Shown here piece after piece: positions 1,698 through 25,362 of a stretch of DNA of 64,000 nt. Origin of the DNA: Elusimicrobiota bacterium (lineage in GTDB: Bacteria; Elusimicrobiota; Elusimicrobia; 2-02-FULL-39-32); assembly GCA_016180425.1 (NCBI GenBank), contig JACPBF010000002.1, positions 62,001-126,000 on the forward strand, given 5' to 3'. Position numbers and translations under genes: made by a program. The notes beneath the pieces were generated by a model, which searched no databases, was not told the origin of the DNA, and saw nothing but the letters and a program-made list of their open reading frames with translations. Numbering within the stretch: the stretch's first letter is position 1; each line of letters starts with the position of its first letter.

Positions 1698-2270
1698 TCA
1701 AGATAAAGTCTTTGCTTTATTTGTTTTCCAGATAAAATATAGTCCTAATCCGCCTAAAATTAAAAATAGAGCCAAGCCCACAAAAAGTTCCATACGCACA
1801 TAATTTAGATCCGTATGAAAAAGCAGCCCCTGTATTTTTGGACCTTCCATTCCATAAGGGTATTGTGAACTTAAAAGATATTTTCCCGGTTTATCAATCA
1901 CAAACTGAAAAAGAGGTATTTGATCTTCTTTTTTATCAGTAGCATACATTTTAGGCGGAAATTTGACAAGTTCTACTACTCTACTTCCTTTTTTTTGAAC
2001 CAGTTGATACTCTAGGTCTTTAATCCAGGAAAGGGTTTCTTTAGATTTGTCTTTATTCAGGGCTAGCGCTATGTAAGAACCCGGTAATCTTAAATTTAAA
2101 TTTTGTTCTCCTGGAATTTGAAGCATGATCAGGCTTTTTCTCACGCTTAAAATAAATGGAGTAATTCCAAAAGATAAAGCAAGGATGCCAATAAAACAGC
2201 AGAGTCCCCCTAACCAATAGCCCCACTGCATAAATAGAGGAGAACTTTTTTTAGAATTTTGTTCGTTCAT
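1698..2270 (-). CDS. Small two-TM membrane protein, unknown function
   Basis: I do not recognise this 190-residue protein. It has one transmembrane segment near residues 16-40 and a second near 160-182, followed by a short basic tail (WKTNKAKTLS). The roughly 115 residues between them, probably periplasmic, contain two PG[SK]Y turns (LRLPGSYIALAL and KPGKYLLSSQYP) that suggest a beta-sandwich. Its ATG overlaps the TGA of the upstream glucanase-like gene by four bases (2267-2270), so it is translationally coupled to the operon and probably serves the same glycan pathway at the inner membrane. It lies between the secreted glucanase and the cytoplasmic GH94 enzyme. Function is open. Confidence 0.75.
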   Translation of the reverse strand: MNEQNSKKSSPLFMQWGYWLGGLCCFIGILALSFGITPFILSVRKSLIMLQIPGEQNLNLRLPGSYIALALNKDKSKETLSWIKDLEYQLVQKKGSRVVELVKFPPKMYATDKKEDQIPLFQFVIDKPGKYLLSSQYPYGMEGPKIQGLLFHTDLNYVRMELFVGLALFLILGGLGLYFIWKTNKAKTLS

Positions 2271-4243: not shown

Positions 4244-5394
4244 GGCATCACATCCACTTTTATATTGTCAATCAAGATTAAACCTTCTCCTCCTTTAGGA
4301 AAACTAACCGCAAACCCAATTAATTTGATATTTTTCATGTTAAGTTCTTTATCGTCTCCGCCCCACCAGTAGGTAAGCTCAGAAAAGGGAATGCGAATCT
4401 CCTGCCATTCATCTTTGCGGGCTAAAGGGAATTTTTTGCCAAACGTGGTATTTTCCTTATCCACTAACTTAAATTCAAAATTGTTTTGTTCTCCGGTCCA
4501 TTTAAGGGAAAAACTAAAAACAGATTTTGAGGTAATTTCAACAGGATAAGATTTTGTGAATTGGATCCATTTGCCAGAGCCAAATTTATACTCGCTGCCA
4601 ATCGCTTCTCTTTCTTTGCCGGGCATAAGAATCATTTTAGATACGGTCCCTTGATCCCCTTCAATTTTCCATCCTTCTAAAGAATCGCAGCTGTCTAGGA
4701 CTCCTGCTTGAACCTTTTCCTGCTGCTTTTTCCAGGAGTCAACCAGTTTTAGATCATCTAGATAAATGGTTCCAGTTCCTCCCTCGCCAGCGCTAATCGC
4801 TAAACCAAATTGAGTGACTAGATCCAACTTAGAATTTCCGCCCCACCAGTAAGAAAAGTCGTCTAAGTCAATGGTGACTAGCTCCCATGTATCCTTAGGT
4901 TTAAGCGGAAACTTATAGCCATAATTTGTGCCGTCATCATCAATTAGTTTCACTTCCACGTTATTTACAGCTCCGCGCGACTTTAAATAAAATTGGATCG
5001 CTTTTCCAGTAAGTTCTGCAATAGAAATATCCTTAATAATCGCGACCCACTGTTTAGTTTGAGCTAAATCATAATCTAGCTGCAAAGCTCTGCCAATTTT
5101 TCCTAAGCCCACATCCAGATTTGTTTTAATAGTGGTCCCATCCGCATTGGAAGGCAGCCAGTCATTAGCTTCAAAACCATCTAAGACAGTCTCTTTAATG
5201 ATTTTAGGCGTCTCTTTTACTACAGGCGCGCTCTGCATCTCTTTTTTAGGCAGAGTGGGTATAGATTGTATTTCATCTTTAGGCACGCTTACTTTTTTCT
5301 TTGGCATTGAATAGCTCATTGGTCTTGGGTCAACCGCGTAAGTTTGAGCTGCAAAAAAGAACAACCCCAAACCAATTATTAGTTTTGTTTTCAT
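4240..5394 (-). CDS. Exported protein with two CBM11/CIA30-like carbohydrate-binding domains
   Basis: A 384-residue protein with a signal peptide (MKTKLIIGLGLFFFAAQTYA), a short basic/proline-rich linker, and two homologous galactose-binding-like beta-sandwich domains at about residues 70-225 and 232-382. Both repeats carry the same internal signature: a YWWGG loop after a [TS]W-containing strand, and an IYLDDLKL or ILIDNIKV ending. No catalytic domain is visible, so it probably binds glycan in the periplasm or at the cell surface and presents it to the neighbouring enzymes. The start ATG forms an ATGA overlap with the GH35 gene upstream, and its stop overlaps the GTG of the glucanase gene. 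Within the operon it most closely resembles the other CBM11/CIA30-like proteins at 10.8-20.6 kb. Whether it is lipid-anchored is doubtful, since no lipobox Cys is seen. Confidence 0.8.
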   Translation of the reverse strand: MKTKLIIGLGLFFFAAQTYAVDPRPMSYSMPKKKVSVPKDEIQSIPTLPKKEMQSAPVVKETPKIIKETVLDGFEANDWLPSNADGTTIKTNLDVGLGKIGRALQLDYDLAQTKQWVAIIKDISIAELTGKAIQFYLKSRGAVNNVEVKLIDDDGTNYGYKFPLKPKDTWELVTIDLDDFSYWWGGNSKLDLVTQFGLAISAGEGGTGTIYLDDLKLVDSWKKQQEKVQAGVLDSCDSLEGWKIEGDQGTVSKMILMPGKEREAIGSEYKFGSGKWIQFTKSYPVEITSKSVFSFSLKWTGEQNNFEFKLVDKENTTFGKKFPLARKDEWQEIRIPFSELTYWWGGDDKELNMKNIKLIGFAVSFPKGGEGLILIDNIKVDVMP

Positions 5395-7580
5395 CTTACT
5401 ACCTCCACGACTTTATTTTTTATTAACTCTAAGGGTAGCACAACCCCTGATCTTTCTTCCATAGTAAATCTTTTTTTAAATTCCTTAATTTTTTGATCTT
5501 TAAATTTTAAGCTGACTGCGCCTTTCTTTTTAACGTCGTGATAATTAAATAAAAATAAAAATCCGCGGGAGTGCATTTTATCCCAACGCAGCGTTCCCTG
5601 CAAATCCCAAGGTTCAAATTTAAGAAAAGGAAACACTTTTAAGGTTTCCATCCATTCCCGAACCATTTGAACTTGATAGTCAAAAACATGATTTAAACCA
5701 AAACCATAAACTATGAAATTCCCAAGCCCGGCTTTTCCATAAAAAGCGCAAGGGAACCCGGTTTTAGTTTTAGCTAAAGAAAATTTATTTTCTATGTTAA
5801 AAGTATGGATTGGAAAATCCACAATCGCTTCTATTCCTTTCCAAACAATGGGCTGTTTTATTTTTTCCTCTTGAAAAGAGATCCCTAATTTTTCAGCTAA
5901 AATCACACAGGGTTTACCAGACAAATTAAGGTTAGGAACCCTAGGACCAAATAAGAGCTTGCCCCCAGATTGCGCATAATCTGCCAACTTGTTTTGAGTT
6001 TCTTCATCCATAGAGTCTAGGGTAAAAACAGAGAGGCTTTCATTTTTAAGCAGCTCTTCTTTTGACTCTTTTAGAAGATCTAAGAATGAATAGTTATAAT
6101 TTGCAAGCTGCAAAAGTCTGGCAAAACCATCAAAAAAGAAATTCGTTCTTTGAGACTCTAGAAGAAATGCCCTTTGCCCAGAGAAATATTCAGTAGCGTA
6201 GTAAGGAACATAAAATCCAATGGCTGTATCATTGATTTTTTTAGTTTCAGCCAGTTGAGAGCCATATTTTTTGATAAGTTTCCCCCACTCTTTTAAAGGC
6301 GCAAAATGCTCTTTGGTTTTTATTCCATCTAAAGAGACAGGGGCTTGCCAATCATGGTAAGATCCAAAAGCTCCTAACCCAGGGAGATTTTCTCCGCTGG
6401 AAAACATGTAGCAATTAACTCCGTTTAAGCCATGCGCTGTGGATGTTTTAAGGTTTAAGTCAATATCCTGCGGATAAAGGCGTGGACGGTCGCGCAAAAT
6501 CCCTGTTTGCAGTTCTGCGCAGATTGAAGGAGATTCTTTGTCTAACATCTTTGTCATTTCCGTGGTGATCCCCACATCATGAAAATTCTCAAAATCCAGC
6601 CTCCTCATTTGATATGCCCCGCCAAACACTGTTTTAGGGACTTGCAGAGAAAAATCCCTAAACATGGAACAAGTCATGGGGCTATAAACCCCTCTTCCGC
6701 GCACATCATAATCATAAAATTGAGGTATGTTGGCGGAAAAAGGAACTGAGAGAGAACTCTGAACAGCTTTTTCCTGCAATTTTTTGAAATAGGCAGCGTA
6801 ATATCTTCTATAAAAAAGGGACCAGTCTAAAAAAATTTGCCAATGTTCTTGCAAAAAATCTTCTTGCGGCTGATGGATATCTTTAAATTCATTATAGTTT
6901 GAGGAATAGGCTGAATTTAACTTTTTTATATCTTGATATTCTTCTTTTAAAAAATCCTGATACATTTTGTTCACCGGAGCCGACTCATCATAGGCTTTAT
7001 GCAGCCAGTGGATCATGCTAATTTCATTGCAGAGCTGAACCAATACAATTGGCCCATTTTTATGAATTTGGTTTTCTTGAACCAAAGGCAAAACCGCGTC
7101 ATACCATTTCCCCACATATTCTAAAAATTTCGGATTTAAATAGGAAAGAAGCAGAGCATGAGGCAAATTATTTACACTGCTTCTCTGCACATAGAGTTCT
7201 GGATGATCTTTTAATAGCCAGCCGGGAATCCCTTCATTCACTAATTCCGCGTTAGATACCGGGCCAACCCTTGCGGAAAAATAAAGATCTGCTTTTTTAA
7301 CCTCTTTTAAAAAAGCTATAAGATTTTTTTGCGGGTGCGATTTTCCTTCAAAATCAAATTTCCCCTGTTCCGATTCATGCCAATTCCAAGGGATGTAAGA
7401 GCTCACGCAATTTAAGCCTGCTGCTTTTGCTTTCCGAACATGATCTTTCCAATATTTTTGAGGGATTCTAAAATAATGAATCTCTCCTGAATAAAGATAA
7501 AAGGGTTTTTTATTTAAGATAAACTGCCCGTTTTCAACTTTCATCGTTGTAGGTTGCATGTCCTTTGTAGAACCTGTCAT
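5391..7580 (-). CDS. GH35-type (clan GH-A) beta-galactosidase-like glycosidase
   Basis: A 729-residue clan GH-A glycosidase. The N-terminal barrel shows GH35 hallmarks: GEIHYFRIP near residue 32, YIPWNWHE near 62 and VQLCNEIS near 181, where E186 would be the acid/base; E356 in SICAELQTG is a plausible nucleophile. The middle (about 455-640) resembles the GH42-type trimerisation domain. There is no signal peptide, so it is cytoplasmic and should act on oligosaccharides brought in by the ABC system encoded just upstream. The start is uncertain: ATG at 7580, 7559 and 7544 are all in frame, and none has an ideally spaced ribosome site; 7580 gives the longest protein. The end overlaps the next gene by ATGA. 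Specificity (beta-galactoside or other beta-glycoside) is not determinable from sequence reading. Confidence 0.85.
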   Translation of the reverse strand: MTGSTKDMQPTTMKVENGQFILNKKPFYLYSGEIHYFRIPQKYWKDHVRKAKAAGLNCVSSYIPWNWHESEQGKFDFEGKSHPQKNLIAFLKEVKKADLYFSARVGPVSNAELVNEGIPGWLLKDHPELYVQRSSVNNLPHALLLSYLNPKFLEYVGKWYDAVLPLVQENQIHKNGPIVLVQLCNEISMIHWLHKAYDESAPVNKMYQDFLKEEYQDIKKLNSAYSSNYNEFKDIHQPQEDFLQEHWQIFLDWSLFYRRYYAAYFKKLQEKAVQSSLSVPFSANIPQFYDYDVRGRGVYSPMTCSMFRDFSLQVPKTVFGGAYQMRRLDFENFHDVGITTEMTKMLDKESPSICAELQTGILRDRPRLYPQDIDLNLKTSTAHGLNGVNCYMFSSGENLPGLGAFGSYHDWQAPVSLDGIKTKEHFAPLKEWGKLIKKYGSQLAETKKINDTAIGFYVPYYATEYFSGQRAFLLESQRTNFFFDGFARLLQLANYNYSFLDLLKESKEELLKNESLSVFTLDSMDEETQNKLADYAQSGGKLLFGPRVPNLNLSGKPCVILAEKLGISFQEEKIKQPIVWKGIEAIVDFPIHTFNIENKFSLAKTKTGFPCAFYGKAGLGNFIVYGFGLNHVFDYQVQMVREWMETLKVFPFLKFEPWDLQGTLRWDKMHSRGFLFLFNYHDVKKKGAVSLKFKDQKIKEFKKRFTMEERSGVVLPLELIKNKVVEVVR

Positions 7581-7606
7581 CCTTATTGTTTAAAAATTAA
7601 AGAGAA

Positions 7607-8461
7607 CTACTCTTTTAAGCCGGTAGTGGCGATTCCGCGAATCACATATTTTTGAGCAAAAACAAAAATAAGGATAATCGGCATCACTACCACCACTGCT
7701 CCTGCCATTAGAAGTCCAAACTTTGTCGCAAACTGACCGCTTAAATTCGCTAAAGCAACAGGCAAGGTGTATCGTTCTTCGCCAATCATTACAATTAAAG
7801 GCCAAAGAAAATCATTCCAAGAGCCCATAAAAGTGAAAATTCCTAATGTAGCCAGCACAGGCTTACAAAGAGGAAGGATCACGTTCCAATAAATTCTAAA
7901 TTCTGAGCAGCCGTCAATCCGGGCAGCTTCAATCAAATCGTCAGGAATGGTCATCATGAATTGACGCACTAAAAATATCCCAAAAATTCCTACAGATGCG
8001 GGAAGGATCAGCCCCCAGTAACTATTTAAAAGCCCTAATTGTTTTAAAAAAAGAAAAACCGGAATCATGGTAATTTGTCCTGGGACCATGAGAGTTGCCA
8101 TAAGCAGAGTAAAAATCTTGTCTCTTCCTAAAAACCTTAATTTTGCAAAAGCATAACCCGCTAAACTGCAAAAGAAAAGATTAAAAAAAGTGGTTGTAAT
8201 GGAAACAATCAGGCTGTTTTTAAAATGAAGAAGAAAATCCACATCTTTAAAAAGTTGTTTGTACCACTCTAAGGTTGGGTGGTCTGGAAACCATTTTGGA
8301 GGATAGGAAAATATGCCTCCTCCGGATTTAAAAGAGGTGGAGACCATCCAAACAAAAGGAGCGATAGTGAATAGAAGCCCTAAAAACAGAGCCAAGTGGA
8401 GCCAAAATTTTTCTATGGCCTTGATTGTTTTATATTTCTGAACGCTGGTCCAATTTGCCAT
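7607..8461 (-). CDS. Sugar ABC transporter permease (MalG/CUT1 type)
   Basis: An integral-membrane permease of the CUT1 carbohydrate importers, about 284 residues with six predicted membrane spans. The cytoplasmic EAA loop that docks the ATPase is clear (LIEAARIDGCSEFRIYWNVI), followed by the usual GSWNDFLWPL of MalG-type subunits. I place the start at the ATG at 8461 (MANWTSV), one base after the upstream stop; a TTG fifteen bases further upstream would overlap the preceding gene and is less likely. It should pair with the permease half of the fused protein encoded upstream to form the heterodimeric channel. No ATPase gene is present in the window. That is common for CUT1 systems, which can share one MsmX/MalK-like ATPase encoded elsewhere. 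Confidence 0.92.
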   Translation of the reverse strand: MANWTSVQKYKTIKAIEKFWLHLALFLGLLFTIAPFVWMVSTSFKSGGGIFSYPPKWFPDHPTLEWYKQLFKDVDFLLHFKNSLIVSITTTFFNLFFCSLAGYAFAKLRFLGRDKIFTLLMATLMVPGQITMIPVFLFLKQLGLLNSYWGLILPASVGIFGIFLVRQFMMTIPDDLIEAARIDGCSEFRIYWNVILPLCKPVLATLGIFTFMGSWNDFLWPLIVMIGEERYTLPVALANLSGQFATKFGLLMAGAVVVVMPIILIFVFAQKYVIRGIATTGLKE

Positions 8462-8462
8462 T

Positions 8463-10793
8463 TTAATTAACTTCAAACCCGCTTTTTCTTAAACGCATCT
8501 GTATAAAAGTAAATATGAAAATAATGCCAAAAAGTATATAAGCTAAACTAGAGGCATAGCCTAATTCAAAAAATTTAAAGCCTTGGTTATACATGTAAAG
8601 CACAATGGACATGGTGGAGTTTAAAGGGCCGCCTTTTGTCATCACATAAGGCTCAGCAAAAAATTGCAAATAACCAATGGTGCTCATTATCACAACAAAA
8701 ACCATAATGCTTCTTAAACCCGGCAAGGTGACATGCAAAAAAAGCTGCCAGGCATTGGCGCCGTCTATTCTAGCGGATTCATACAGGGTTTCTGGAATGC
8801 TCTGTAATCCTGCTAGAAATATGATCATGTTATATCCAAAATTTTTCCAAGCAGCCATTAAAATTAAGGAAGCTAAAGCGGTCCGCGGATCCGCCAGCCA
8901 GTTGAATTCAGGCAAAGACATGCTTTTTAATATGTAATTAAGCAGCCCAAATTCTGGATTGTAGAGCCAGCGCCAAATCACAGCTACTGCCACAATCGTA
9001 GAAACCACAGGCACGAAATAAGCGGTTCTAAAAAATGTTTTAAGTTTTACGAATTTTTCGTTTAAGACAGTGGCGCAGAGCAAAGAGATCATTACTGTAA
9101 AAGGAACCCCAACGCCGGTAAAAAAAAGAGTGTTCCACAAAGATTTCCAGAAGATCGCGTCCTGAAAAACTTTTTTATAATTTCTTAAACCAATGAATCC
9201 AACGCTGGAGCGGTCCGCCAAACCATAGATATTCCAGTCCGTTAAACTAATGAAAAAAGAGGCAAGGATAGGGACAAAAAGAAAAAGAACTAAGATGGTA
9301 ACGCTGGGCGCAATAAAACAATATCCAGAGAAGGATCGTATTAAATTAAGGGAAAATGTTTTTTTAGATTCTAATCTGGGGATTTTGCGAGATTCTATGA
9401 ATCTGCTTTTAATAAAAAATTTATATTTCCAGAAGATAAAAAATGCAAGGATGCCAAAGAGCGTAAGAACAAAAAATGTTAAAGATTTTTTAATTCCACC
9501 TTTGCTAGATTTAGATTTAGAAAGAATGACCTCAATCTCTTTTTCCAAAGAACTTAGACTGTTTGAAACATTTCCATCCAAAATAGTTTGCCCTAAAATC
9601 ATCGCTTCTGTTCTGGTTTCTAAAGTATCAGCGATCTGCTCCCATTCAGGAAGTTGAGGAGGGCTTTGAGTGTCTTGCATCTGCTTTCCAAAAATCCTTA
9701 ACATGGGGTGATCTCTTAGTAAAGGATCTTCCCATGCAAGTTTTACCGCAGGCAGGCTTTTCATGATGCGGTGCCATTCTATTTGAATGTCGGGTCTAGA
9801 TAAAAATTCTACGAATTTCCAGGCTAACTCTTTCTTTTTTGAATCTTTAAATACCACTAAATTGCAGCCGCCAACAAAAGAAGTTCTTTTCTTTTTACCA
9901 GGCAACACCGCAACTCCCCATTTTCCATCTAACTCTGGCAGCTCTTTATGCACCAAGTCCACCATCCAAGGTCCTGAAATAAACATGGGATAAAAACCTG
10001 TGCGAAAAGCTTGAAAAATATCCATATCCGCAGCCCTGCCATGAGGGGTGAGATTTTCTTTAAAAAAACTCATGTAGTATTCTAGCGCTTCTTTAAATTC
10101 TGGTTGTGTAGGATGGAATACATCTCCTCCATTTTGCCAGACAAAGGGAAGAAAAACTCCCCAGCCGCGCACAGGCAAGGCGATGCCGTAACGATCTATT
10201 TTTTTATCCCCGTCTAAATCTTTAGTTAAAGCTCTTGAGGCTGCTTTAAATTCTTCCCAAGTTTTTGGCGCATCTAAAAACCCCGCTTCTTTTAAAAGAT
10301 CTTTTCTATAAAAAAGAACGCGTGTATCTACATACCAGGGCACGCCAACCACTTTTTTACCAACCACATTGGTATTCCAAGAACCTTCAAAAAAATTCTC
10401 CTTCTGAATGATTTTAGATTTCTGAATATAAGATTCCAGCGGTTCAAACGCATTGAGAGTGGCGAATTCCGCCATCCAAGTAGTGCCCATTTGCGATACA
10501 TCCGGAGGCAAACCTCCCACAACAGAGGTCAATAGTTTTTCATGCGCAGCATCCCAGGGAATTGCCTGAGTTTTGATCTCAACTCCTGGATTTTCCTGTT
10601 CAAATTTCCGAGCCATGATAGAAATTCTTAAACCCTCTTCTCCCATGGCCCAAACCGTAAGGGCTTTAGGGTTAGAAGAAATTAAACGAAGATTGGGTTT
10701 AGAAAAAAGCGCAGAGGGGCTAAAGGAAAGGAATAGGCAAAAAATTAGAAATGGTCTAAGATGTTTTAAAAAACTTTGTAAGGTTTTACCCAT
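8463..10793 (-). CDS. Fused sugar-binding protein / ABC permease (MalE-MalF type in one chain)
   Basis: A 776-residue chimera of two importer parts that are normally separate. Residues 1-32 are a signal or anchor segment. Residues about 43-425 are an extracellular solute-binding protein of family 1 (VWAMGEEGLRISIMARKFE, PKTWEEFKAASRALT, FISGPWMVD). A transmembrane linker (about 437-463) and a basic cytoplasmic segment lead into a complete MalF-type permease (about 485-776) with the EAA motif (YESARIDGANAWQLF). The extra membrane span gives a sensible topology: binding protein outside, permease N terminus inside. Its start overlaps the upstream TAA by one base (TAATG), and the partner permease follows within one base. 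It should deliver oligosaccharides from the periplasm to the cytoplasmic GH94 and GH35 enzymes. Fused binding proteins are well known in Opu-type importers but are unusual for CUT1 sugar systems. Confidence 0.9.
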   Translation of the reverse strand: MGKTLQSFLKHLRPFLIFCLFLSFSPSALFSKPNLRLISSNPKALTVWAMGEEGLRISIMARKFEQENPGVEIKTQAIPWDAAHEKLLTSVVGGLPPDVSQMGTTWMAEFATLNAFEPLESYIQKSKIIQKENFFEGSWNTNVVGKKVVGVPWYVDTRVLFYRKDLLKEAGFLDAPKTWEEFKAASRALTKDLDGDKKIDRYGIALPVRGWGVFLPFVWQNGGDVFHPTQPEFKEALEYYMSFFKENLTPHGRAADMDIFQAFRTGFYPMFISGPWMVDLVHKELPELDGKWGVAVLPGKKKRTSFVGGCNLVVFKDSKKKELAWKFVEFLSRPDIQIEWHRIMKSLPAVKLAWEDPLLRDHPMLRIFGKQMQDTQSPPQLPEWEQIADTLETRTEAMILGQTILDGNVSNSLSSLEKEIEVILSKSKSSKGGIKKSLTFFVLTLFGILAFFIFWKYKFFIKSRFIESRKIPRLESKKTFSLNLIRSFSGYCFIAPSVTILVLFLFVPILASFFISLTDWNIYGLADRSSVGFIGLRNYKKVFQDAIFWKSLWNTLFFTGVGVPFTVMISLLCATVLNEKFVKLKTFFRTAYFVPVVSTIVAVAVIWRWLYNPEFGLLNYILKSMSLPEFNWLADPRTALASLILMAAWKNFGYNMIIFLAGLQSIPETLYESARIDGANAWQLFLHVTLPGLRSIMVFVVIMSTIGYLQFFAEPYVMTKGGPLNSTMSIVLYMYNQGFKFFELGYASSLAYILFGIIFIFTFIQMRLRKSGFEVN

Positions 10794-13408
10794 TAGAAAT
10801 TAAATTCTATGCTTCCACGAACAAAATTGTCATCATAAGGAAATCCCTTGGGCTCAAAATCTGTGCTGCCAAAATGTGCAGTTCTAAATTCTCCTAAAAC
10901 TTTTAAGTTGGTCATTGGAAAATATTCCAGCTTGCCATAAAGCGCTTCAGTCACAAAAGTTTTCCCGCTTCCAGGATGTTCAATATCCTCTCTTTTTGGT
11001 TTAATAAAAAATGCGAGTTTTGGATTTATTTGTGTTCTTATGTAAAGCTCACTGACAATAACTTTTTCGTTTTTGTTATAAGCAACGGAAGTCCTGTTGC
11101 TGGTATAAACATATTCTTCCCTGCGAATTTCTTGGCTGAAAGCAATGTCCATTTTGTCAAAACCATAATAGCCAATTCCATAGTTTACGCGATTCCTAAA
11201 ATAAGAATCGTTTACATTGCGTTTAATTGTATCATATTCAAGCGACCCTACCAAACCTCTCCAGGATTCAACTGCCCTTATATTATGCCCTTTTTGATCA
11301 CTTTCTGAATCATCAAAAGAGATTGGGCTTTGACGGTAGCGAGGCTTAAAGTTTGTATCCACAGAACGAATTTCATAATTAATTTTAAGACCCGGAATGT
11401 AAATGGAATTTAGAGCAACGCGCCCTCTTCCCATAAAACCATCCACTTGTAATATGGGGTCTAAAAGGTTGCCAAAAACAGGATCAAAAGGGTTAGTTCT
11501 ATCCACTTGCGCTCTTTGCGTATAACGATTGTATCCAAAAGTGCCGCCAAAAGTTATTTTGTCATCCCAAAAAGCCCGATCTAAATCTAATGTATAAACC
11601 CAGTCGTTTTGAACTTCCTGTAATTGAAGATCTTTAGATTTCTGTAATGTCCCATCTTTTAAAACGCTTGCGTCATTAATTTTAGCGGTTTCTCTATAAT
11701 AAACAGTAATGCCGGAAAATCTAAATCCCTCCCAATAAAATTTTGCTCTGGAACCAATGGTAAAGGAATCAAATTTGTGTTTTAAAATAAAAGCATGATA
11801 ATTAATTCTATTTAGATCCCCCTCTACGCTTAATCCTTTAAATCCAAATACCGGCGAAAAAGTAAAAGGAGAATAATCAACAAAAAGATTACCTACAGTC
11901 ATCTGGGTAAGATAAGGTGAAATATTATTGGCAAAACCCTGAAGATTGACCTGCATTTCTCTTGAAGATTGAGTCACAGCAGTGCTGCCTGAAGCTGTGG
12001 ACTCCGCAATACTATACCGAGCTGCTTCGCCAAATTCTTGAGATTCCGCGGCAATTTCAAATTTCGCGCTATAGTTGCCTACCTTGCCATTAGCGATCAG
12101 TTTTCCAAAATGGTTCACTGTGCTTTTTTGTTCAGGAGCATTTAAAAACTCTGTAAAAAGTTGTCCATTAAATTCTATGTTGCCAATCCTTAATATTCGA
12201 ATTTTCTCTTTTTCCACAATTTTTGGAGGCTGGGCCCAGGCCTGAGCAATCGCTTCCCCAGTAACATAAAGATAGTCAACCTGAATTTTGCCTGCGGAAG
12301 TTTTTACGCCCGGCGAAGACTTTGAACCGCCCACGCTTATGATCGTAATTTCATAGCCCCTAATTTGATCTAAATCCAAAGCCTGATTTTTTTGTGTCCA
12401 TTTTTCTTCTTGCGTAAATTTTTTTATTGGCATTTCCATTAGATCCCACTGGCTTAGTTTTAAGATTTCCGAATCATCATAATTCCATCGTTCTCCATCC
12501 GCATCTATTAAGGAAAAGCGCAAGATATTCCCAGAGCCGTCTCCCTTCACCCACATTTTAATCGCATCAGCCCCTCGCCAATCTAAAGTCACCTCTTTTG
12601 CCTGCCACCTGGCGCTGACCCAGGATCCCCATCCCCTGGCAGTAGAAAGCGTGTAATCTAGGTCCATGGCAAAATCCCCTTCTTTTACTATTCTGGACGC
12701 GTTTAATTCTAAAGAGGATTCATCCCCAGTATAAACCAGATAAACATCCGTAGGGTTAGATCGTTCAAAACTATCCACCAGGACTTTATTGACCTGCACC
12801 ATGCTGCCTAACCCAATCCCTTCTTCAGAAGAGTCTGGAACCTCAAACTGAAAATCATCCAAAACAATAGTTCCTTCTCCAGACTGTTCATTAAAACCAA
12901 GATTTAAATTATCCATAGAGGTAAGATCCACCCCTTCAAATTCTTTTAAAGGTATTTTTACTTTTCTCCATTCTGTGCTCACATCAACAAAACGACTGAT
13001 CAAGAGTTTCTTTTCCGCATTCGCTTTATTTTTAATCCCAATTTCAAAATCCTCTCCCCCTTTTTCACCCTTAATATAAAAGGTAAGCCAAGTGTAGTCC
13101 TCTAAATTGATTCCTTTTAAAGAGAGTCCCCATCCTGCCCATCCTTCTTTCACCACATCATAATGAAGATTAACTACATTATGTCTTACCTCATCCGCTT
13201 CATTAATGGAAACTTGCAGCAATGTGCCTTTTTCATCCTTAAAAGAAAAAGCGCTTCCGCGCACATCATCGAAATTTTCCACACTTTCTGCTCTTGCATA
13301 AAGAAAACCATTTGAAATCCCTAAAATGAGAAAAAGAGTAAAAAAAGTAAGAAAAAAGTTTGTCGTCGCTCGTTGCCTCCAATGTCCTATGTTCAATATT
13401 GTTTTCAT
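10793..13408 (-). CDS. Carbohydrate-binding/outer-membrane beta-barrel fusion
   Basis: An 871-residue protein with a signal peptide (cleavage near residue 41), two CBM11/CIA30-like domains (about 42-190 and 207-383), and a long C-terminal region (about 400-871) of alternating amphipathic strands rich in aromatics. It ends in VRGSIEFNF; the terminal Phe is the usual signal for BamA-dependent outer-membrane insertion. I read it as an outer-membrane barrel with glycan-binding domains attached, possibly the pore that admits oligosaccharides, which would substitute for SusC/SusD of Bacteroidota. The ATG at 13408 has AAGGG about seven bases upstream. The next gene starts inside its stop codon. The barrel does not match a porin family I can name, so the transport role is inferred from architecture and neighbours. 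Confidence 0.75.
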   Translation of the reverse strand: MKTILNIGHWRQRATTNFFLTFFTLFLILGISNGFLYARAESVENFDDVRGSAFSFKDEKGTLLQVSINEADEVRHNVVNLHYDVVKEGWAGWGLSLKGINLEDYTWLTFYIKGEKGGEDFEIGIKNKANAEKKLLISRFVDVSTEWRKVKIPLKEFEGVDLTSMDNLNLGFNEQSGEGTIVLDDFQFEVPDSSEEGIGLGSMVQVNKVLVDSFERSNPTDVYLVYTGDESSLELNASRIVKEGDFAMDLDYTLSTARGWGSWVSARWQAKEVTLDWRGADAIKMWVKGDGSGNILRFSLIDADGERWNYDDSEILKLSQWDLMEMPIKKFTQEEKWTQKNQALDLDQIRGYEITIISVGGSKSSPGVKTSAGKIQVDYLYVTGEAIAQAWAQPPKIVEKEKIRILRIGNIEFNGQLFTEFLNAPEQKSTVNHFGKLIANGKVGNYSAKFEIAAESQEFGEAARYSIAESTASGSTAVTQSSREMQVNLQGFANNISPYLTQMTVGNLFVDYSPFTFSPVFGFKGLSVEGDLNRINYHAFILKHKFDSFTIGSRAKFYWEGFRFSGITVYYRETAKINDASVLKDGTLQKSKDLQLQEVQNDWVYTLDLDRAFWDDKITFGGTFGYNRYTQRAQVDRTNPFDPVFGNLLDPILQVDGFMGRGRVALNSIYIPGLKINYEIRSVDTNFKPRYRQSPISFDDSESDQKGHNIRAVESWRGLVGSLEYDTIKRNVNDSYFRNRVNYGIGYYGFDKMDIAFSQEIRREEYVYTSNRTSVAYNKNEKVIVSELYIRTQINPKLAFFIKPKREDIEHPGSGKTFVTEALYGKLEYFPMTNLKVLGEFRTAHFGSTDFEPKGFPYDDNFVRGSIEFNF

Positions 13409-13420
13409 TTTAAAGCCCTT

Positions 13421-15289
13421 TTAAATTTTTATTAAGTTTAAGATGCCTAACTGTATCTGCTCCATATTTTTTGGATTTTTAATAAAATGCCAGTTGAGTT
13501 TAGCTTCCCTAGTTTTATCTTCCAAATCCAGATCATGAAGCGCTATTGACATTCCTAAGGATATGGGTTCAAGAGAATTGAACTCATATCTTTGCCATAC
13601 GTTTTCCGCAAGAGATAAAGACAAAAATTTAAAAGAGATCGCTGCTTCTATTTGATAGCCTCCTGGAATTAATTTAGAGGCGATTTGAATTTCATCAGAT
13701 GCGGGCTTACGGTTTTGGAACCAAGCCCAGGTTTGCGGAGTTTTTTCAGGTCCAGAAGGAGCCAGACCAATTTGAAAATCATTTAAATTTCCCCAAAAAA
13801 AATTGTCATTATTTGGATCTATAAAAAGTTCAATCACGTCCGCAATGTAAATATATTTATTGGTCCTTAAACAAACCACCTCATTGTCTTTTACTTTTGC
13901 CGCAAAATAAAGATTTTTTTGATCAAACTGAAAAAAAATCTCATCTGAAAAATCATCCTCATTTGTAATTTTTCCTGATTCTAGATATTTTAGCCCATTT
14001 AAACGCAGGCTTTCAACGTTTTGCCATTCTGTAAGATTGCCATCTATCTCGATCTCATTCTTTATTGAGTAAGCTGGAAAAGTGGGCATGGTTTGAAAAA
14101 TAAATTCTACCCTGCGATTTTTTGCCCTGCCTTCTTCAGTCTCATTGGTGTCAACTGGTTTTTTTAGTCCCCAGCCATAAATCATAAGATGATCCGATTC
14201 CAATCTCTCAACCTCTGCTAAATATTTTTTAACGGTTTTGGCTCTATTTAAAGAAAGATTAAAATTATATTCTTCTCCTCCAACGCTGTCCGTGTGGCCA
14301 TGAATTTCAACGTAAAAATTGGGATGATCTTTAATCAATTGCGCTACTTTTCTTAAATTTTCAAATTCGCTATCTAAAATTATTGCTTTATTGGTTTCAA
14401 AAAGAATATAAGTTGTGACCATTACATTCTTTTCATCCCGACGCACTTCTAATTGCGCTGCTTTTGCAGCGCTCTCAATTTCTTCTTGTTCTCTTTGCAG
14501 CGCTTGATCTACTAAAGGAGAAAGAGTGTCTGGAATTTCCGCTAGAGGAGGGGGTTGGGGAATAGGATCTGGAGCAGGTTGGGATTGAGCAATCTCCAGA
14601 GATTCAAGATAATCATAATAGTCCTCAATTTCAATCATGCTGGTTGCAAAATAAAGTTCATCCAGGTAAAGGGTTCCTTTGCCTAAAGTTACATTAGAGT
14701 CAAATACAAAAACAATCTCTTGCAATTCTTTTAAATTAATCGTCGCGGCAAATTGGCGCAATGGAATAAAAAATCTTTTCCAATCCGATGTGATCCCATC
14801 CACATAGTAAGAAATAGATCTTTTATCATCTTTGAATTCTACTTTAAATTTTCGAGTGTATCCTTGAGCAGGATCTCCTCTAACTGAAAAAACAAAATAG
14901 CGGAAAGGCGTGGTATCCAATTTTTGTAAACCCATATAGATTCCGTTAAAAGCTATGGCATGAAACCCATGTTCTTGAGAGCTAATCCGTTCACGAGACT
15001 CAACATAGGTTTTCATGTAACTTTCCACATTGTAATTTACTTTTAAGGAAGCGCCTCTCTGCCCAAGATAGGTTTGCCCGTCATGCGCAATTTCACACCA
15101 TTGGCTGGTATCATTTGGGTTGCTTTTCCATGTGCCTATAGCGCCATTCCTTTTATTCATCATTTTTTTAATATTAAAATCATCCATAACTAAGATATCG
15201 CCTTTAGTTAAAGCTAAAAGAGGGTTTAAGAATCTTACTTCTAAAAGATTCAAAAATAAAATCAAGAAAAAAAATATTTTTTTAATCAT
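13421..15289 (-). CDS. CBM11-like / OmpA / CBM9 three-part envelope protein
   Basis: A 622-residue exported protein with three recognisable parts. After a signal peptide comes a CBM11/CIA30-like domain (about 33-220), a proline-rich linker (about 240-262), an OmpA-family peptidoglycan-binding domain (about 290-405; HGHTDSVGGEEYNFNLSLNR, GWGLKKPVDTNETEEGR, KNRRVEFIF), and finally a CBM9-like domain (about 415-622; DVIELFIDPNND, LNWHF) homologous to that of the glucanase at 2267-4243. The OmpA domain carries the Asp and Arg residues that bind diaminopimelate. The protein probably tethers carbohydrate-binding domains to the cell wall in the periplasm, keeping glycan near the importer. ATG at 15289 overlaps the upstream stop (ATGA). 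I know no standard name for this architecture. Confidence 0.85.
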   Translation of the reverse strand: MIKKIFFFLILFLNLLEVRFLNPLLALTKGDILVMDDFNIKKMMNKRNGAIGTWKSNPNDTSQWCEIAHDGQTYLGQRGASLKVNYNVESYMKTYVESRERISSQEHGFHAIAFNGIYMGLQKLDTTPFRYFVFSVRGDPAQGYTRKFKVEFKDDKRSISYYVDGITSDWKRFFIPLRQFAATINLKELQEIVFVFDSNVTLGKGTLYLDELYFATSMIEIEDYYDYLESLEIAQSQPAPDPIPQPPPLAEIPDTLSPLVDQALQREQEEIESAAKAAQLEVRRDEKNVMVTTYILFETNKAIILDSEFENLRKVAQLIKDHPNFYVEIHGHTDSVGGEEYNFNLSLNRAKTVKKYLAEVERLESDHLMIYGWGLKKPVDTNETEEGRAKNRRVEFIFQTMPTFPAYSIKNEIEIDGNLTEWQNVESLRLNGLKYLESGKITNEDDFSDEIFFQFDQKNLYFAAKVKDNEVVCLRTNKYIYIADVIELFIDPNNDNFFWGNLNDFQIGLAPSGPEKTPQTWAWFQNRKPASDEIQIASKLIPGGYQIEAAISFKFLSLSLAENVWQRYEFNSLEPISLGMSIALHDLDLEDKTREAKLNWHFIKNPKNMEQIQLGILNLIKI

Positions 15290-16203
15290 AATTTAAGAGT
15301 CAATGAATAGCTTAGAGTATCCCCTAACTTTTCTTCTCTTTCCCAGCCAAAATCTAACAGTAAAGATTTATATTTTAATCCTAAACCCCAGGCAAAGCGC
15401 AGCTCTTGTTCTCTTTCTACTCCTCCCAGCCTGATTTGCATCACGCGGTTAAAAAAGCCTTGTTCAATTCCAAGCCTATGGGTTTGGCGTGTTTGATCTT
15501 GCCATTCAACCTGGGCTCCTAATAAAGTATCTGGAAAGATTCTGCTGGAGACCCCTGCCCTAACTTGAATTGGCAGCCTTTCTTTAACCCCTGAATCCCA
15601 AGTAATCACGGTTCGATTGATGTCCTGAACACCAGCGCCTAACACTAGCCAAGGCTCTTTTAAAACATAGGTTAACCCTACATCTAAACCCATGCCGCTT
15701 GCGCCAATAGAACTATGAACCCTGTAATACTTGCCATTTAATCCTAAATAAAGGGGCTTAAAAAAGTGGGTGGCATAGGAGAAAACTAAAGTATTTTCTG
15801 AATAATCTAGAAAACTCGCTTCTCCAATGGTGTCTAAACGGTACCAGCTAAAAGCAACGCTTCCTTTGCCAACATTGGGTTGAAGGTATCCAGCTGTTAT
15901 ATGCCGAAGCAACCCTAAACCATAGAGATTTTTATATTCAGAATGCAATGTTTTTTCATTGACCAGAGCGATTCCGGAAGGATTCCAGAATATGGAAGAA
16001 TAATCTTCAGCCACAGCCACAAAACTTCCTCCCATGCCTTGAGCTCTTGCTCCCAACCCTTGGGATTCAAATACAGCGCCCTGTCCCACGTAAGGGATAA
16101 AAATAAATATAAAAAATAAAAGGAACAGTCGTAAAATACCATCTAGTCCGTTAGAAATGAATGGCTGTTTTGCGCAAGAATCTAAAAAAATTATCTTCTT
16201 CAC
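15286..16203 (-). CDS. PorV/PorQ-like outer-membrane beta-barrel protein
   Basis: A 305-residue outer-membrane barrel of the PorV/PorQ (FadL-superfamily) type. The N-terminal signature is distinct: LGARAQGMGGSFVAVAEDYS followed by FWNPSGIALV, which is the conserved plug region of this family. Strands with aromatic girdles follow to the end (SYSLTLKL). The start codon is GTG at 16203 in a GTGA overlap with the upstream gene; a hydrophobic export segment follows at about residues 24-43. In Bacteroidota, PorV shuttles type IX secretion cargo, and here the two preceding genes end in FlgD/gliding-type C-terminal domains. That makes a cargo-handling role tempting, but PorV-like proteins are also widespread in bacteria without a known type IX system, and no Sov/SprA or other core component lies in the window. 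Confidence 0.82.
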   Translation of the reverse strand: MKKIIFLDSCAKQPFISNGLDGILRLFLLFFIFIFIPYVGQGAVFESQGLGARAQGMGGSFVAVAEDYSSIFWNPSGIALVNEKTLHSEYKNLYGLGLLRHITAGYLQPNVGKGSVAFSWYRLDTIGEASFLDYSENTLVFSYATHFFKPLYLGLNGKYYRVHSSIGASGMGLDVGLTYVLKEPWLVLGAGVQDINRTVITWDSGVKERLPIQVRAGVSSRIFPDTLLGAQVEWQDQTRQTHRLGIEQGFFNRVMQIRLGGVEREQELRFAWGLGLKYKSLLLDFGWEREEKLGDTLSYSLTLKL

Positions 16204-18119
16204 TTTAAAACCCCTATGATCTGCCTTATAATATCTTTACGCTTGTCATTGGATTCAGCTTCTAAACGAAAAATATAAAGACCATTCAGCGCCTTTTCGT
16301 TTCCTGAATCTTTTCCATCCCAGCTTAAAGCATGTTCTCCAGCGCTTTGGGTTGGGGCAGCAACCATTTTAATTTCATTTCCACTTAAATCATAAATTCT
16401 TAAATTTACTTTGCTTTCAGCGTCCAATGAATAGATAAAGAAAACCTCGTCTTTAATTGAATCTCCATTAGGTGAAAAAGGGTTATTCACTGTGCGAATA
16501 CTGGTAATTAAATTTCCTGGACGGTTCTGATCCAGTTCACCGCCAGATTCCAATGCTTCTAAAGAGTCCACGGCAAAAGTACCGCTGCCTCCAGCGCCTT
16601 TGGCAACTGCGAATTCAACTTTTTTAATTTTTTTAAGATTTAGGCTAGAATCATCCCCAGCGCTAAAAAAAACAAGCTGGTCATAAGGAACAACCGCATT
16701 TTTCCAAACCCCGCTGGTGTTTGAGGCAATAAAAAATTTTTTAAACCATGTGGTGTTATCACTGTCTGTTAGTTTAAATTCTACATTGTTAGAAGAGTTA
16801 GTTCCTTTATACTGGAATTTAAGCGCGGAAAAGGGATAGATGGAATGATAAAATTGTTTTTCAATTAAAGCATATGGGGTTTCTGTAGGTTTAGAAGGTG
16901 AATTTGTAAAGTTGTAATTTAGCTGATAAACCCGGTTAGAAGCAGCTGAGTCTGGAACTGTAATGTCTGAAATCGCGGAAACAGATAAAGAAGCATCTGC
17001 ATGAGTACTGCTCTCCCAATTATTTGAGGGAAAATCCATATCCATCTCATCTATGGTCAGAAGAACTTTTGTCTCTTCTCCAACTCGAATAAAAGCAATA
17101 TCATCCAAATAGACGATTCCCGAGCCGCTATTAATTCCAGTATCTTTTTGAGCAAGCAGCGTAAAAACAGTGACGGTGCTAAAATTAACAGCAGTAAAAG
17201 AGGAAAGAGGAACACGCACTTCCTGAAAAGAGGTGGTAATGCCTGCGGATAGAAAAGTAGAAATGAAAAGTTCCGTTGTTCCTTGAGGACTTTCCAGCTT
17301 AAATTTTAAAACCTCTCCACCTGCTTCCCCTTTAATTTTAAACGAAAAATGGGTATTGTTTTGATAGTTTCTATCTCCCAATCCAATAGTGATGCCAGAA
17401 AAATTACCACTGCTTGGCTCATTATAAGTAACTTTCATTACTTTTTCCCCTCCTACAGTGGCATATTCTTTAACAACTGTTCCTCCAGTAGCAAAGGTTG
17501 TAGAATTTTGATTAAAAAGATTTGGATCAGCGCCATCATTAAAATCATCCACTAAATTATAGGTGCTCTTTAAAACCTCGATTTTATCTATCCAGACCTT
17601 TCCGGAAGTGCGGGGTCCTGTATCCTGGTTAACGCCAACAGCCAGCCTGGCCACCTTTTTATAATCAAATGAATTAGTGCCATCTCCAAAAAGCGCAAAA
17701 GCAGGAAATGGAAGATTGAGTGTTCTCCAAGTATTATCATCAAGTAAGGCAGCTTTATAGACTAGCTTATCGCATTTGGAAGTATCTGTGCTGTCTGAAT
17801 CAGTGAATTTAACTTCCAAAGTATTAGTGCTTCCAGTCGCTTTATAACGCAGGCGTATGGAGTTGCCAAGATCGCTTACAAAATCTCTTGAAGTATAATC
17901 TTTAGAAAAAACTGCCCAATTCCCAGTGCCTAAAGAATAGGTCATCTCTAAAGCATTGTTATTTACGCCTGTAATACCATTTAAACTTGCGCTGGAACCC
18001 GTGTCTGTGCTTGTACTAGCGGTCACTGTGGAGGTAGAAGAATAATCATCCAACATTAAGCTATGAGCTAAAGCTGGCAAAAAATTTAAAATAAAAAAAA
18101 TCCAAAATATTTTTTTCAT
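16200..18119 (-). CDS. Exported protein: three CBM11/CIA30-like domains plus FlgD-Ig-type C-terminal domain
   Basis: A 639-residue secreted protein. After the signal peptide (MKKIFWIFFILNFLPALAHS) there are three related beta-sandwich domains at about residues 22-187, 188-348 and 350-527. Each opens with an acidic [VL]DD/DEMD turn and closes with a [IV].[LI]D.I.[FVL] strand (KVWIDKIEVL, IVYLDDIAFI, TFAVDSLEAL). The C-terminal ~95 residues start NPFSPNGDSIKDE and contain YDLSGNEI and LSWDGKDSGN, typical of FlgD-Ig/gliding-motility C-terminal domains that act as outer-surface sorting signals in some phyla. There is no catalytic domain. Likely a surface glycan-binding protein. ATG 18119 overlaps the upstream stop (ATGA), and its own stop overlaps the GTG of the PorV-like gene, placing cargo-like and PorV-like genes side by side. 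Confidence 0.82.
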   Translation of the reverse strand: MKKIFWIFFILNFLPALAHSLMLDDYSSTSTVTASTSTDTGSSASLNGITGVNNNALEMTYSLGTGNWAVFSKDYTSRDFVSDLGNSIRLRYKATGSTNTLEVKFTDSDSTDTSKCDKLVYKAALLDDNTWRTLNLPFPAFALFGDGTNSFDYKKVARLAVGVNQDTGPRTSGKVWIDKIEVLKSTYNLVDDFNDGADPNLFNQNSTTFATGGTVVKEYATVGGEKVMKVTYNEPSSGNFSGITIGLGDRNYQNNTHFSFKIKGEAGGEVLKFKLESPQGTTELFISTFLSAGITTSFQEVRVPLSSFTAVNFSTVTVFTLLAQKDTGINSGSGIVYLDDIAFIRVGEETKVLLTIDEMDMDFPSNNWESSTHADASLSVSAISDITVPDSAASNRVYQLNYNFTNSPSKPTETPYALIEKQFYHSIYPFSALKFQYKGTNSSNNVEFKLTDSDNTTWFKKFFIASNTSGVWKNAVVPYDQLVFFSAGDDSSLNLKKIKKVEFAVAKGAGGSGTFAVDSLEALESGGELDQNRPGNLITSIRTVNNPFSPNGDSIKDEVFFIYSLDAESKVNLRIYDLSGNEIKMVAAPTQSAGEHALSWDGKDSGNEKALNGLYIFRLEAESNDKRKDIIRQIIGVLK

Positions 18120-25277: not shown

Positions 25278-25362
25278 AATTTAGTTTTAAGGCATTAGAA
25301 AATGGAAGTTGCAGCCTATAAATTTGGGCGCTACAAAAAATTGGAATAATTTTTTAGAATAA

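What the first reader, a model, noticed from the sequence alone, without database searches (positions are those of the whole stretch)
10793..13408. Carbohydrate-binding domains fused to an outer-membrane barrel
Two N-terminal binders and a C-terminal barrel ending in Phe could combine glycan capture and entry in one polypeptide, functionally replacing a SusCD pair.
Basis: inference. Interest (0 to 1): 0.5.

Follow-up and report, generated by a model that had tools for sequence, protein, structure and literature searches.

The report
Sugar-binding domains fused to membrane barrel
An uncultured Elusimicrobiota bacterium carries, inside what looks like a beta-1,2-glucan-eating operon, a predicted outer-membrane channel with two sugar-binding domains built into it, most likely hanging on the inner side of the membrane to catch sugar chains as they come through.

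Summary
The 871-aa ORF is real: signal peptide, CBM30-like domain, CBM11 domain and a 460-aa C-terminal domain ending in Phe, which AlphaFold2 models as a beta-barrel of 22 strands (alone: pLDDT 82.6, pTM 0.76). No Pfam family matches the barrel better than E 0.039; 14 of 340 Elusimicrobiota genomes carry it. [quoted passage not shown] there are also a PF10091 glucanase-type enzyme, a complete ABC importer and a LacI regulator. The 98%-complete genome has no TonB-receptor plug, receptor-barrel or SusD match. But loop lengths place both barrel ends in the periplasm, so its binders probably catch glucan after entry; separate CBM proteins of the operon are better candidates for surface capture. 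Having no plug, it cannot work as a TonB-coupled SusC. It is no general substitute: 11 of 14 genomes with this barrel also have TonB-receptor plugs elsewhere. Transport, ligand and orientation are inferred, not shown.

The parts
13289..13408 (-). N-terminal Sec-type signal peptide region (residues 1-40)
   Evidence: sequence: basic n-region, hydrophobic core, no lipobox Cys; read by eye, no predictor available
12830..13282 (-). CBM30-like domain (residues 43-193)
   Evidence: Pfam CBM30 E 3.1e-11; profile to 1wmx E 1.7e-11; model to 2c24 Z 16.2, 2.5 A over 146 residues
12251..12799 (-). CBM11 domain (residues 204-386)
   Evidence: Pfam CBM_11 E 1.6e-17; profile to CtCBM11 1v0a E 9e-5; model to 6r31 Z 17.8, 2.8 A over 158 residues
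12179..12250 (-). linker (residues 387-410), low confidence
   Evidence: pLDDT below 50 at residues 397-408
10796..12178 (-). C-terminal beta-barrel, 22 predicted strands (residues 411-871), terminal Phe
   Evidence: DSSP of two models; loop lengths; end-to-end alignment with 22-strand barrels
11843..11884 (-). conserved outer loop, residues 509-522
   Evidence: conservation 0.689 against a barrel mean of 0.602
11297..11359 (-). conserved outer loop, residues 684-704, possible eyelet or substrate site
   Evidence: conservation 0.678; P689, R692, D699, D704 and the next residue Q705 invariant in the 15 rows
10826..10870 (-). conserved outer loop, residues 847-861
   Evidence: conservation 0.674; the three most conserved 12-residue windows of the barrel overlap it
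8463..10793 (-). substrate-binding protein fused to a MalF-type permease (776 aa)
   Evidence: Pfam SBP_bac_1 E 2.9e-46, BPD_transp_1 E 7.9e-11
7607..8476 (-). MalG-type permease (289 aa)
   Evidence: NCBIfam ABC_arch_GlcU E 5e-41, below its cut-off
5391..7580 (-). GH35 enzyme of the beta-1,2-glucosyltransferase (IaSGT) type; no signal peptide by eye
   Evidence: best PDB 7vkw E 4.7e-110; seven of seven key residues kept
4240..5394 (-). secreted protein (384 aa) with CBM11/CIA30 domains and an SGBP-B-like glycan-binding match
   Evidence: Pfam CBM_11 E 7.1e-9, CIA30 E 1.9e-8, SGBP_B_XBD E 7.3e-7, all above cut-off
2267..4243 (-). secreted PF10091 (glucanase-type; GH144/GH189 labels recalled) enzyme with CBM9
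   Evidence: Pfam Glycoamylase E 7.9e-15, CBM9_1 E 1.1e-20; [quoted passage not shown]
13421..15289 (-). secreted protein with OmpA and CBM9 domains (622 aa), likely peptidoglycan-bound glycan relay
   Evidence: Pfam OmpA E 3.4e-21, CBM9_1 E 4.5e-14; role inferred
15286..16203 (-). PorV/PorQ-like barrel (305 aa)
   Evidence: NCBIfam PorV_fam E 1.2e-20, 74 bits, below the cut-off of 90
16200..18119 (-). CBM11-repeat protein with FlgD-Ig / sorting-tail-like end
   Evidence: Pfam CBM_11 E 6.5e-18, FlgD_ig E 3.3e-13, CHU_C E 8.7e-8; TIGR04183 24.0 bits against a cut-off of 23
18116..20566 (-). CBM30-like, Ig-like protein with CHU_C tail
   Evidence: Pfam CHU_C E 2e-8, CBM30 E 4.4e-6
20592..21608 (-). 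LacI-family regulator
   Evidence: Pfam LacI E 2e-19, Peripla_BP_3 E 1.7e-34

Best explanation
The protein is the outer-membrane channel of an Elusimicrobiota beta-1,2-glucan uptake operon. Proposed working (inferred): glucan or its oligosaccharides are held at the surface by other CBM proteins of the operon, diffuse through the wide 22-strand barrel past conserved outer loops, and are caught at its periplasmic mouth by the CBM11 and CBM30-like domains, which act as a retention device or cork. The CBM9-OmpA and CBM11 proteins pass them on, the PF10091 enzyme shortens them, the fused binding-protein/permease with the MalG-type permease and a UgpC-type ATPase carries them inside, and GH94 and GH35 process them. 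Shown by computation: architecture, modelled barrel, operon content, lack of Plug, receptor-barrel and SusD matches in the genome. Inferred: ligand, direction of transport, orientation, retention role.
For: Barrel of 22 strands in two models, N- and C-terminus on the short-turn side, terminal Phe. CBM30-like and CBM11 folds. Operon: GH35 closest to IaSGT (372 bits against 238 for the next enzyme) with Y52, E102, N175, E176, N275, E343, Y378 kept (7 of 7); [quoted passage not shown] PF10091 enzyme closest to 8wy1 and the same synthase; SBP-permease, permease and UgpC-type ATPase. A published Ignavibacterium cluster has a similar enzyme set and ABC importer (PMC8861115, passages). The SBP-permease lies directly downstream of the barrel in 10 of 15 copies (window); GH35 occurs in 12 of the 14 barrel genomes. 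No Plug, TonB_dep_Rec or SusD in a 98.5% complete genome.
Against: 12 other genomes have the GH35 gene without the barrel, so the enzymes do not need it; the stretches read around 5 of those did not show me a replacement channel. 11 of 14 barrel genomes also have Plug domains elsewhere. The genome has 3 TonB_C domains whose partners are unknown. The GH94 enzyme matches cellobiose phosphorylases nearly as well (426 bits against 514) and no NCBIfam model, so its specificity is less firm. Residues recalled as ligand contacts of CtCBM11 are mostly changed, so glucan binding is not assured. Domain placement is not predicted (pTM 0.48). In-out alternation is weak in 10 of 22 strands. A plug-less 22-strand barrel would be a very large hole unless gated.
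Confidence: 0.6

Rival explanations
1. A polysaccharide exporter in the manner of PgaA, BcsC or AlgE: periplasmic binding domains feed a newly made glucan into the barrel.
For: Foldseek's top 14 rows for the barrel alone are all AlgE, the alginate exporter (best 2.3e-9); N-terminal periplasmic domains plus a barrel is the layout recalled for PgaA and BcsC.
Against: The operon looks degradative and importing (LacI regulator, ABC importer with a binding protein, phosphorylase-type GH94, GH35, secreted PF10091 enzyme). The genome's only PF10091 domain is the one in this operon, so no cyclic-glucan synthase carrying such a domain was found; other glucan synthases were not searched for. A paralogue sits beside GH130, GH2 and GH65 genes.
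Confidence: 0.1
2. The CBMs are threaded through the barrel, autotransporter-like, and capture glycan at the surface.
For: The linker of about 20 residues could span the barrel; domain placement is not fixed by the model (pTM 0.48).
Against: Classical autotransporters have 12 strands (recalled); here 22. Surface capture could be served by separate CBM proteins with sorting-like tails beside PorV-like barrels.
Confidence: 0.12
3. Not a transporter: an outer-membrane anchor that tethers periplasmic glucan or carries the CBMs as part of a larger surface complex with the PorV-like barrel.
For: A PorV-like gene lies in the same co-directional gene run in 12 of 15 copies; in the other three the contig ends upstream within one gene (window).
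Against: Three long outer loops are more conserved than the barrel mean, suggesting a pore or substrate site; a 22-strand barrel is far larger than an anchor needs.
Confidence: 0.15

Closest known systems
SusC/SusD glycan importers of Bacteroidota (for example BT1762-1763)
   Same: 22-strand barrel in an operon for one glycan; model aligns with the SusC barrel of 5t3r (Z 16.7, 5.6 A over 369 residues)
   Different: no plug, no SusD lid, no sequence match to PF00593; binders fused in the same chain and predicted periplasmic; Plug and receptor-barrel matches absent from this genome
Cytophaga hutchinsonii chu_1276-chu_1280 atypical cellulose PUL (PMC12016534, passages read)
   Same: SusD-free locus with a barrel-like protein said to retrieve hits to TBDTs (CHU_1276) and a protein of two CBM-like domains (CHU_1279, SGBP-B-like)
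   Different: two separate proteins, cellulose, surface-side binder; homology to our protein not tested
Ignavibacterium album beta-1,2-glucan cluster (PMC8861115, passages read)
   Same: GH35 IaSGT, a GH94 homologue, GH144 enzymes and an ABC sugar importer
   Different: authors suggest a TonB-dependent transporter for the outer membrane; no CBM-barrel protein mentioned in the passages read
LamB, OprD/Occ, AlgE sugar and substrate channels
   Same: outer-membrane barrel for sugars or small solutes; structural match
   Different: 18 strands (recalled), no fused CBMs, no sequence relation found
PgaA / BcsC exporters (recalled)
   Same: periplasmic N-terminal domains fused to a C-terminal barrel
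   Different: TPR repeats and 16 strands, export in synthesis operons

Membership tests
TonB-dependent receptor / SusC | N-terminal plug domain (PF07715) | tested here: not met
   Pfam scan of the protein gives only CBM_11, CBM30, CIA30 up to E 0.1
TonB-dependent receptor / SusC | 22-strand barrel | tested here: met
   22 strands in both models; prediction only
TonB-dependent receptor / SusC | barrel sequence family PF00593 | tested here: not met
   not among the five families listed for 15 members up to E 1; none in the genome
SusCD pair | SusD lipoprotein partner | tested here: not met
   no PF07980 in the genome; only this one SusD model was searched genome-wide. An SGBP-B-like match (PF18329), not SusD, is on the 384-aa neighbour
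CBM11 | sequence and fold of the family | tested here: met
   Pfam above cut-off; Z 17.8 to 6r31
CBM11 | ligand-contact residues of CtCBM11 (recalled list) | tested here: inconclusive
   D99 kept, Y53, R126, D128, Y129, H149, Y152 changed in the profile alignment; list not confirmed from a paper (one search found none)
CBM30 | sequence and fold of the family | tested here: met
   Pfam 43.9 bits against a cut-off of 27; Z 16.2 to 2c24
Autotransporter (type Va) | 12-strand translocator after the passenger | tested here: not met
   22 strands predicted; the number 12 is recalled
Poly-glycan exporter (PgaA/BcsC) | periplasmic TPR repeats | tested here: not met
   no TPR hit up to E 0.1
[quoted passage not shown]
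   7 of 7 kept in the alignment; R349 and L100 differ, as the paper says they do in many homologues
Glycan import channel | passage of sugar through the purified protein | not testable with these tools
   needs a bilayer or liposome assay

The most novel reading that the evidence does not exclude
A TonB-free class of outer-membrane glycan importers in which the SusC plug and the SusD lid are both replaced by carbohydrate-binding domains fused to a plug-less 22-strand barrel: the CBMs form a periplasmic cork that opens by binding the chain and ratchets it inward, and the unusually wide pore serves large, stiff substrates such as cyclic beta-1,2-glucans. A paralogue in a mannan-type locus (G332:C19) and a CBM11 fused to a different, Phe-ended, barrel-looking domain beside a PorV-like gene (G243:C110) would show that the module is exchanged between glycans and between barrels.
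Probability: 0.2. Interest if true: 0.72.

Novelty: new variant of a known kind. Interest (0 to 1): 0.48.

Why it matters
How bacteria outside Bacteroidota bring large glycans across the outer membrane without SusCD is, to my knowledge, largely open. Here a genome without detected TonB-receptor plugs offers a single-chain candidate with a clear substrate hypothesis (beta-1,2-glucan), linked genes and several relatives, so that binding, channel activity and orientation can be tested directly. It also adds a barrel family without a Pfam model.

Tried and rejected
Relatives outside the phylum: one scan of genome contigs (84,980 species) with the whole protein gave two loci, both Elusimicrobia (such a scan uses short peptides and finds close relatives only); plasmid collection none. 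So restriction to Elusimicrobiota is not established.

Idea that the barrel replaces TonB receptors throughout its range: rejected, 11 of 14 barrel genomes have Plug domains (7, 4; absent in G000, G001 and G005, the last only 80% complete). None of those hits lies on a barrel-bearing contig except two on G022:C33, about 126 and 245 kb from the barrel.

Idea that GH35 loci without the barrel hold a SusCD or another channel in its place: seven stretches read, of which five (L087-L091) come from barrel-free genomes and two (L092, L093) from barrel genomes, plus two extensions. Only two proteins from these stretches were scanned by Pfam, L094:7008-8999 (no family) and L088:2329-4248 (PF10091, CBM9). 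No replacement was recognised, but this was judged mostly from blastp against the window operon and the look of the starts, and several stretches are cut by contig ends. Seven of the 12 barrel-free GH35 genomes were not read.

Sequence search of the CBM11 part alone against PDB chains gave nothing; the profile did. Paper searches for a CBM fused to an outer-membrane barrel: 0 papers; 0; 2, neither on this by title; 10 listed, four of them opened for passages; none of those passages describes such a fusion. Searches (19 papers, 15 listed; 49, 12 listed; 35, 8 listed) were read as listings only, apart from PMC12016534. Most subscription papers are not held, so this is no proof of absence in print.

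Structural families that are absent from the VIA-align lists are not excluded; rows within Z 1 are tied, so the barrel cannot be assigned to one solved family.

Full report
WHAT IS THERE. The ORF at 10793-13408 on the minus strand encodes 871 residues and ends in Phe. The window lies in a 2.6-Mb, 98.5% complete genome; the closest named record found is an Elusimicrobia metagenome genome with a 95% identical copy. Residues 1-40 look like a Sec signal peptide. Pfam finds CBM_11 (E 1.6e-17), CBM30 (E 3.1e-11) and CIA30. The C-terminal 460 residues match no Pfam family better than E 0.039 in any of 15 members.

BARREL. AlphaFold2 with a 15-row alignment gave pLDDT 77.5 and pTM 0.48 for the whole protein and pLDDT 82.6 and pTM 0.76 for the barrel alone. 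I counted strands from the DSSP lines: 22 long strands in both, leaving out short hairpins in loops. I could not see coordinates, so closure is inferred from end-to-end alignment with 22-strand barrels (BtuB 1nqf Z 16.2, 4.0 A over 340 residues; the SusC of 5t3r Z 16.7, 5.6 A over 369). FimD and MtrB align almost as well, OprD-type porins over fewer residues, and rows within Z 1 are tied. Foldseek TM-scores normalised by the model reach 0.46 in the 50 rows shown, and its best E-values are to AlgE. Alternation of hydrophobic residues is clear in 12 of 22 strands and weak in 10. So a large barrel is well supported, 22 strands is the modelled count, and kinship to any solved barrel is open.

ORIENTATION. 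Turns on the N-terminal side of the barrel are 2, 2, 2, 2, 4, 6, 2, 2, 2, 2 residues (mean 2.6); the others 6, 31, 14, 5, 17, 7, 21, 7, 6, 4, 15 (mean 12.1). By the general rule for outer-membrane barrels (recalled), the short-turn side is periplasmic. The C-terminal Phe and the even strand count agree. The CBMs then hang in the periplasm. Three of the long loops (509-522, 684-704, 847-861) are more conserved than the barrel mean (0.689, 0.678, 0.674 against 0.602), while two others (456-486, 578-594) are less so (0.522, 0.469); conserved outer loops are compatible with a pore or binding site.

BINDERS. The model matches CBM30 (2c24, Z 16.2, 2.5 A over 146 residues) and CBM11 (6r31, Z 17.8, 2.8 A over 158 residues, 25% identity). 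In the profile alignment to CtCBM11, of the ligand contacts that I recall for that protein, D99 is kept but Y53, R126, D128, Y129, H149 and Y152 are changed. The fold is there; the ligand may differ from mixed-linkage glucan.

OPERON. In the direction of transcription: LacI regulator, two CBM proteins with sorting-tail-like ends, PorV-like barrel, OmpA-CBM9 protein, the barrel protein, a binding protein fused to a MalF-type permease, MalG-type permease, GH35, a CBM11/CIA30 protein that also matches the SGBP-B domain PF18329, PF10091 enzyme with CBM9, a 190-aa protein, then just beyond the window GH94 and a UgpC-type ATPase (L032). GH35: best PDB match is the beta-1,2-glucosyltransferase IaSGT (372 bits; next enzyme 238), and the seven subsite and catalytic residues named in PMC8861115 are kept, including Asn175, which is Asp in the glucosaminidase TkGlmA. 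[quoted passage not shown] PF10091 enzyme: best matches 8wy1 and the same synthase. PMC8861115 (passages) describes a similar set in Ignavibacterium album, with a TonB-dependent transporter suggested for the outer membrane. This makes beta-1,2-glucan the likely substrate, about 0.8 in my judgement.

WHO ELSE HAS IT. A barrel-only profile finds 15 copies in 14 of 340 genomes of the phylum at E up to 1e-3. The whole-protein profile at 1e-10 marked 18 of 340, the extra four (G239, G243, G245, G323) matching only in the CBM part. Neighbour genes were compared by blastp (L030 and L031 are taken to be the contigs of G001 and G008). Counting the window with these: a PorV-like gene lies in the same gene run in 12 of 15 copies, the other three contigs ending upstream within one gene; the SBP-permease lies directly downstream in 10 of 15. 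GH35 occurs in 24 of 340 genomes at E up to 1e-60; 12 of these have the barrel and 12 do not, and 2 barrel genomes lack GH35. A second copy in G332 (C19, 28% identical; that genome is 7% contaminated) sits among GH130, GH2, phosphomannomutase and GH65 genes with PorV-like genes and a CBM11-repeat homologue, which suggests that the module is reused for another glycan, perhaps a mannan; one case only. In G243 a 722-aa protein carries one CBM11 (profile A4, E 6.8e-19) followed by about 500 residues ending in Phe that look barrel-like by eye but do not match the barrel profile (E 0.15); it lies between a PorV-like gene and a CBM9 protein. It was not modelled. If it is a barrel, CBM11-barrel fusions are wider in the phylum than my 14 genomes.

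NO TonB RECEPTOR. The genome has no Plug domain, no TonB-receptor barrel and no SusD PF07980; Plug and the receptor barrel were found in 3 of 14 control genomes and SusD in 1. Its congener G001 and the 80%-complete G005 also lack Plug. It does have three TonB_C domains. Against a simple replacement story, 11 of the 14 barrel genomes have Plug domains elsewhere.

HOW IT PROBABLY WORKS. The CBM proteins with CHU_C or FlgD-Ig ends, the PorV-like barrel and an SprA-like ORF of 1869 aa (G000:C25, four colinear weak matches, below the curated cut-off; no control genome matched) suggest that surface capture is done by separately exported proteins. The FlgD-Ig match is stronger than CHU_C for the 639-aa protein, so its tail may not be a sorting signal. 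The fused CBMs would then retain chains on the periplasmic side, keep the inward gradient steep and perhaps cork the pore. No energy coupling is visible. Every step of this paragraph is inference.

WHAT IS KNOWN. The nearest concept that I found is the SusD-free cellulose locus chu_1276-1280 of Cytophaga, with a barrel-like protein that its authors say retrieves hits to TBDTs and a separate protein of two CBM-like domains (PMC12016534, passages). Fibrobacter papers (PMC6851124, PMC4668043, PMC4619616, passages) have CBM11 and CBM30 on cellulases and on one small binding protein (CBM30), not on barrels, in what I read.

Noticed in passing
window 31992-63932 (-): Open frame of 10,646 aa, about half of the window; three stretches of 3,300 residues (9,900 of 10,646) gave no Pfam match at E 1e-4. 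A giant protein of unknown kind.
   Followed up: partly
L099:5676-7844 (G243:C110): 722-aa protein with one CBM11 and a different C-terminal domain ending in Phe that looks barrel-like by eye, beside a PorV-like gene and a CBM9 protein; possibly a second kind of CBM-barrel fusion.
   Followed up: partly
window 8463-10793 (-): ABC substrate-binding protein and MalF-type permease fused in one chain; homologues directly follow the barrel in 10 of 15 copies (window).
   Followed up: partly
G000:C25:15782-19066 and window 15286-20566: SprA-like ORF (1869 aa), PorV-like barrel and CBM proteins with sorting-like tails hint at a type IX-like secretion route in Elusimicrobiota; SprA matches in 30 of 31 genomes, none above the curated cut-off.
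   Followed up: partly
G000 (own genome): Three TonB_C domains but no Plug and no TonB-receptor barrel; what these TonB-like proteins serve is unexplained.
   Followed up: no
L073 (G332:C19:32000-50000): Paralogue of the barrel protein in a locus with GH130, GH2 mannosidase-like, phosphomannomutase and GH65 genes.
   Followed up: partly
L034:7363-9762 (-), L035 about 7071-9438 (+): A further GH94 gene (34% identical to the operon's own in L034; broken into two frames in L035) lies between the permease and GH35 in two relatives.
   Followed up: no
window 21744-28731 (-): Two large proteins in tandem (1177 and 1122 aa) that look like RND-family transporters by eye; not searched.
   Followed up: no
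window 28858-29436 (-): 192-aa coiled-coil-like protein with repeats of the kind DDTRDQLDRKI; not studied.
   Followed up: no
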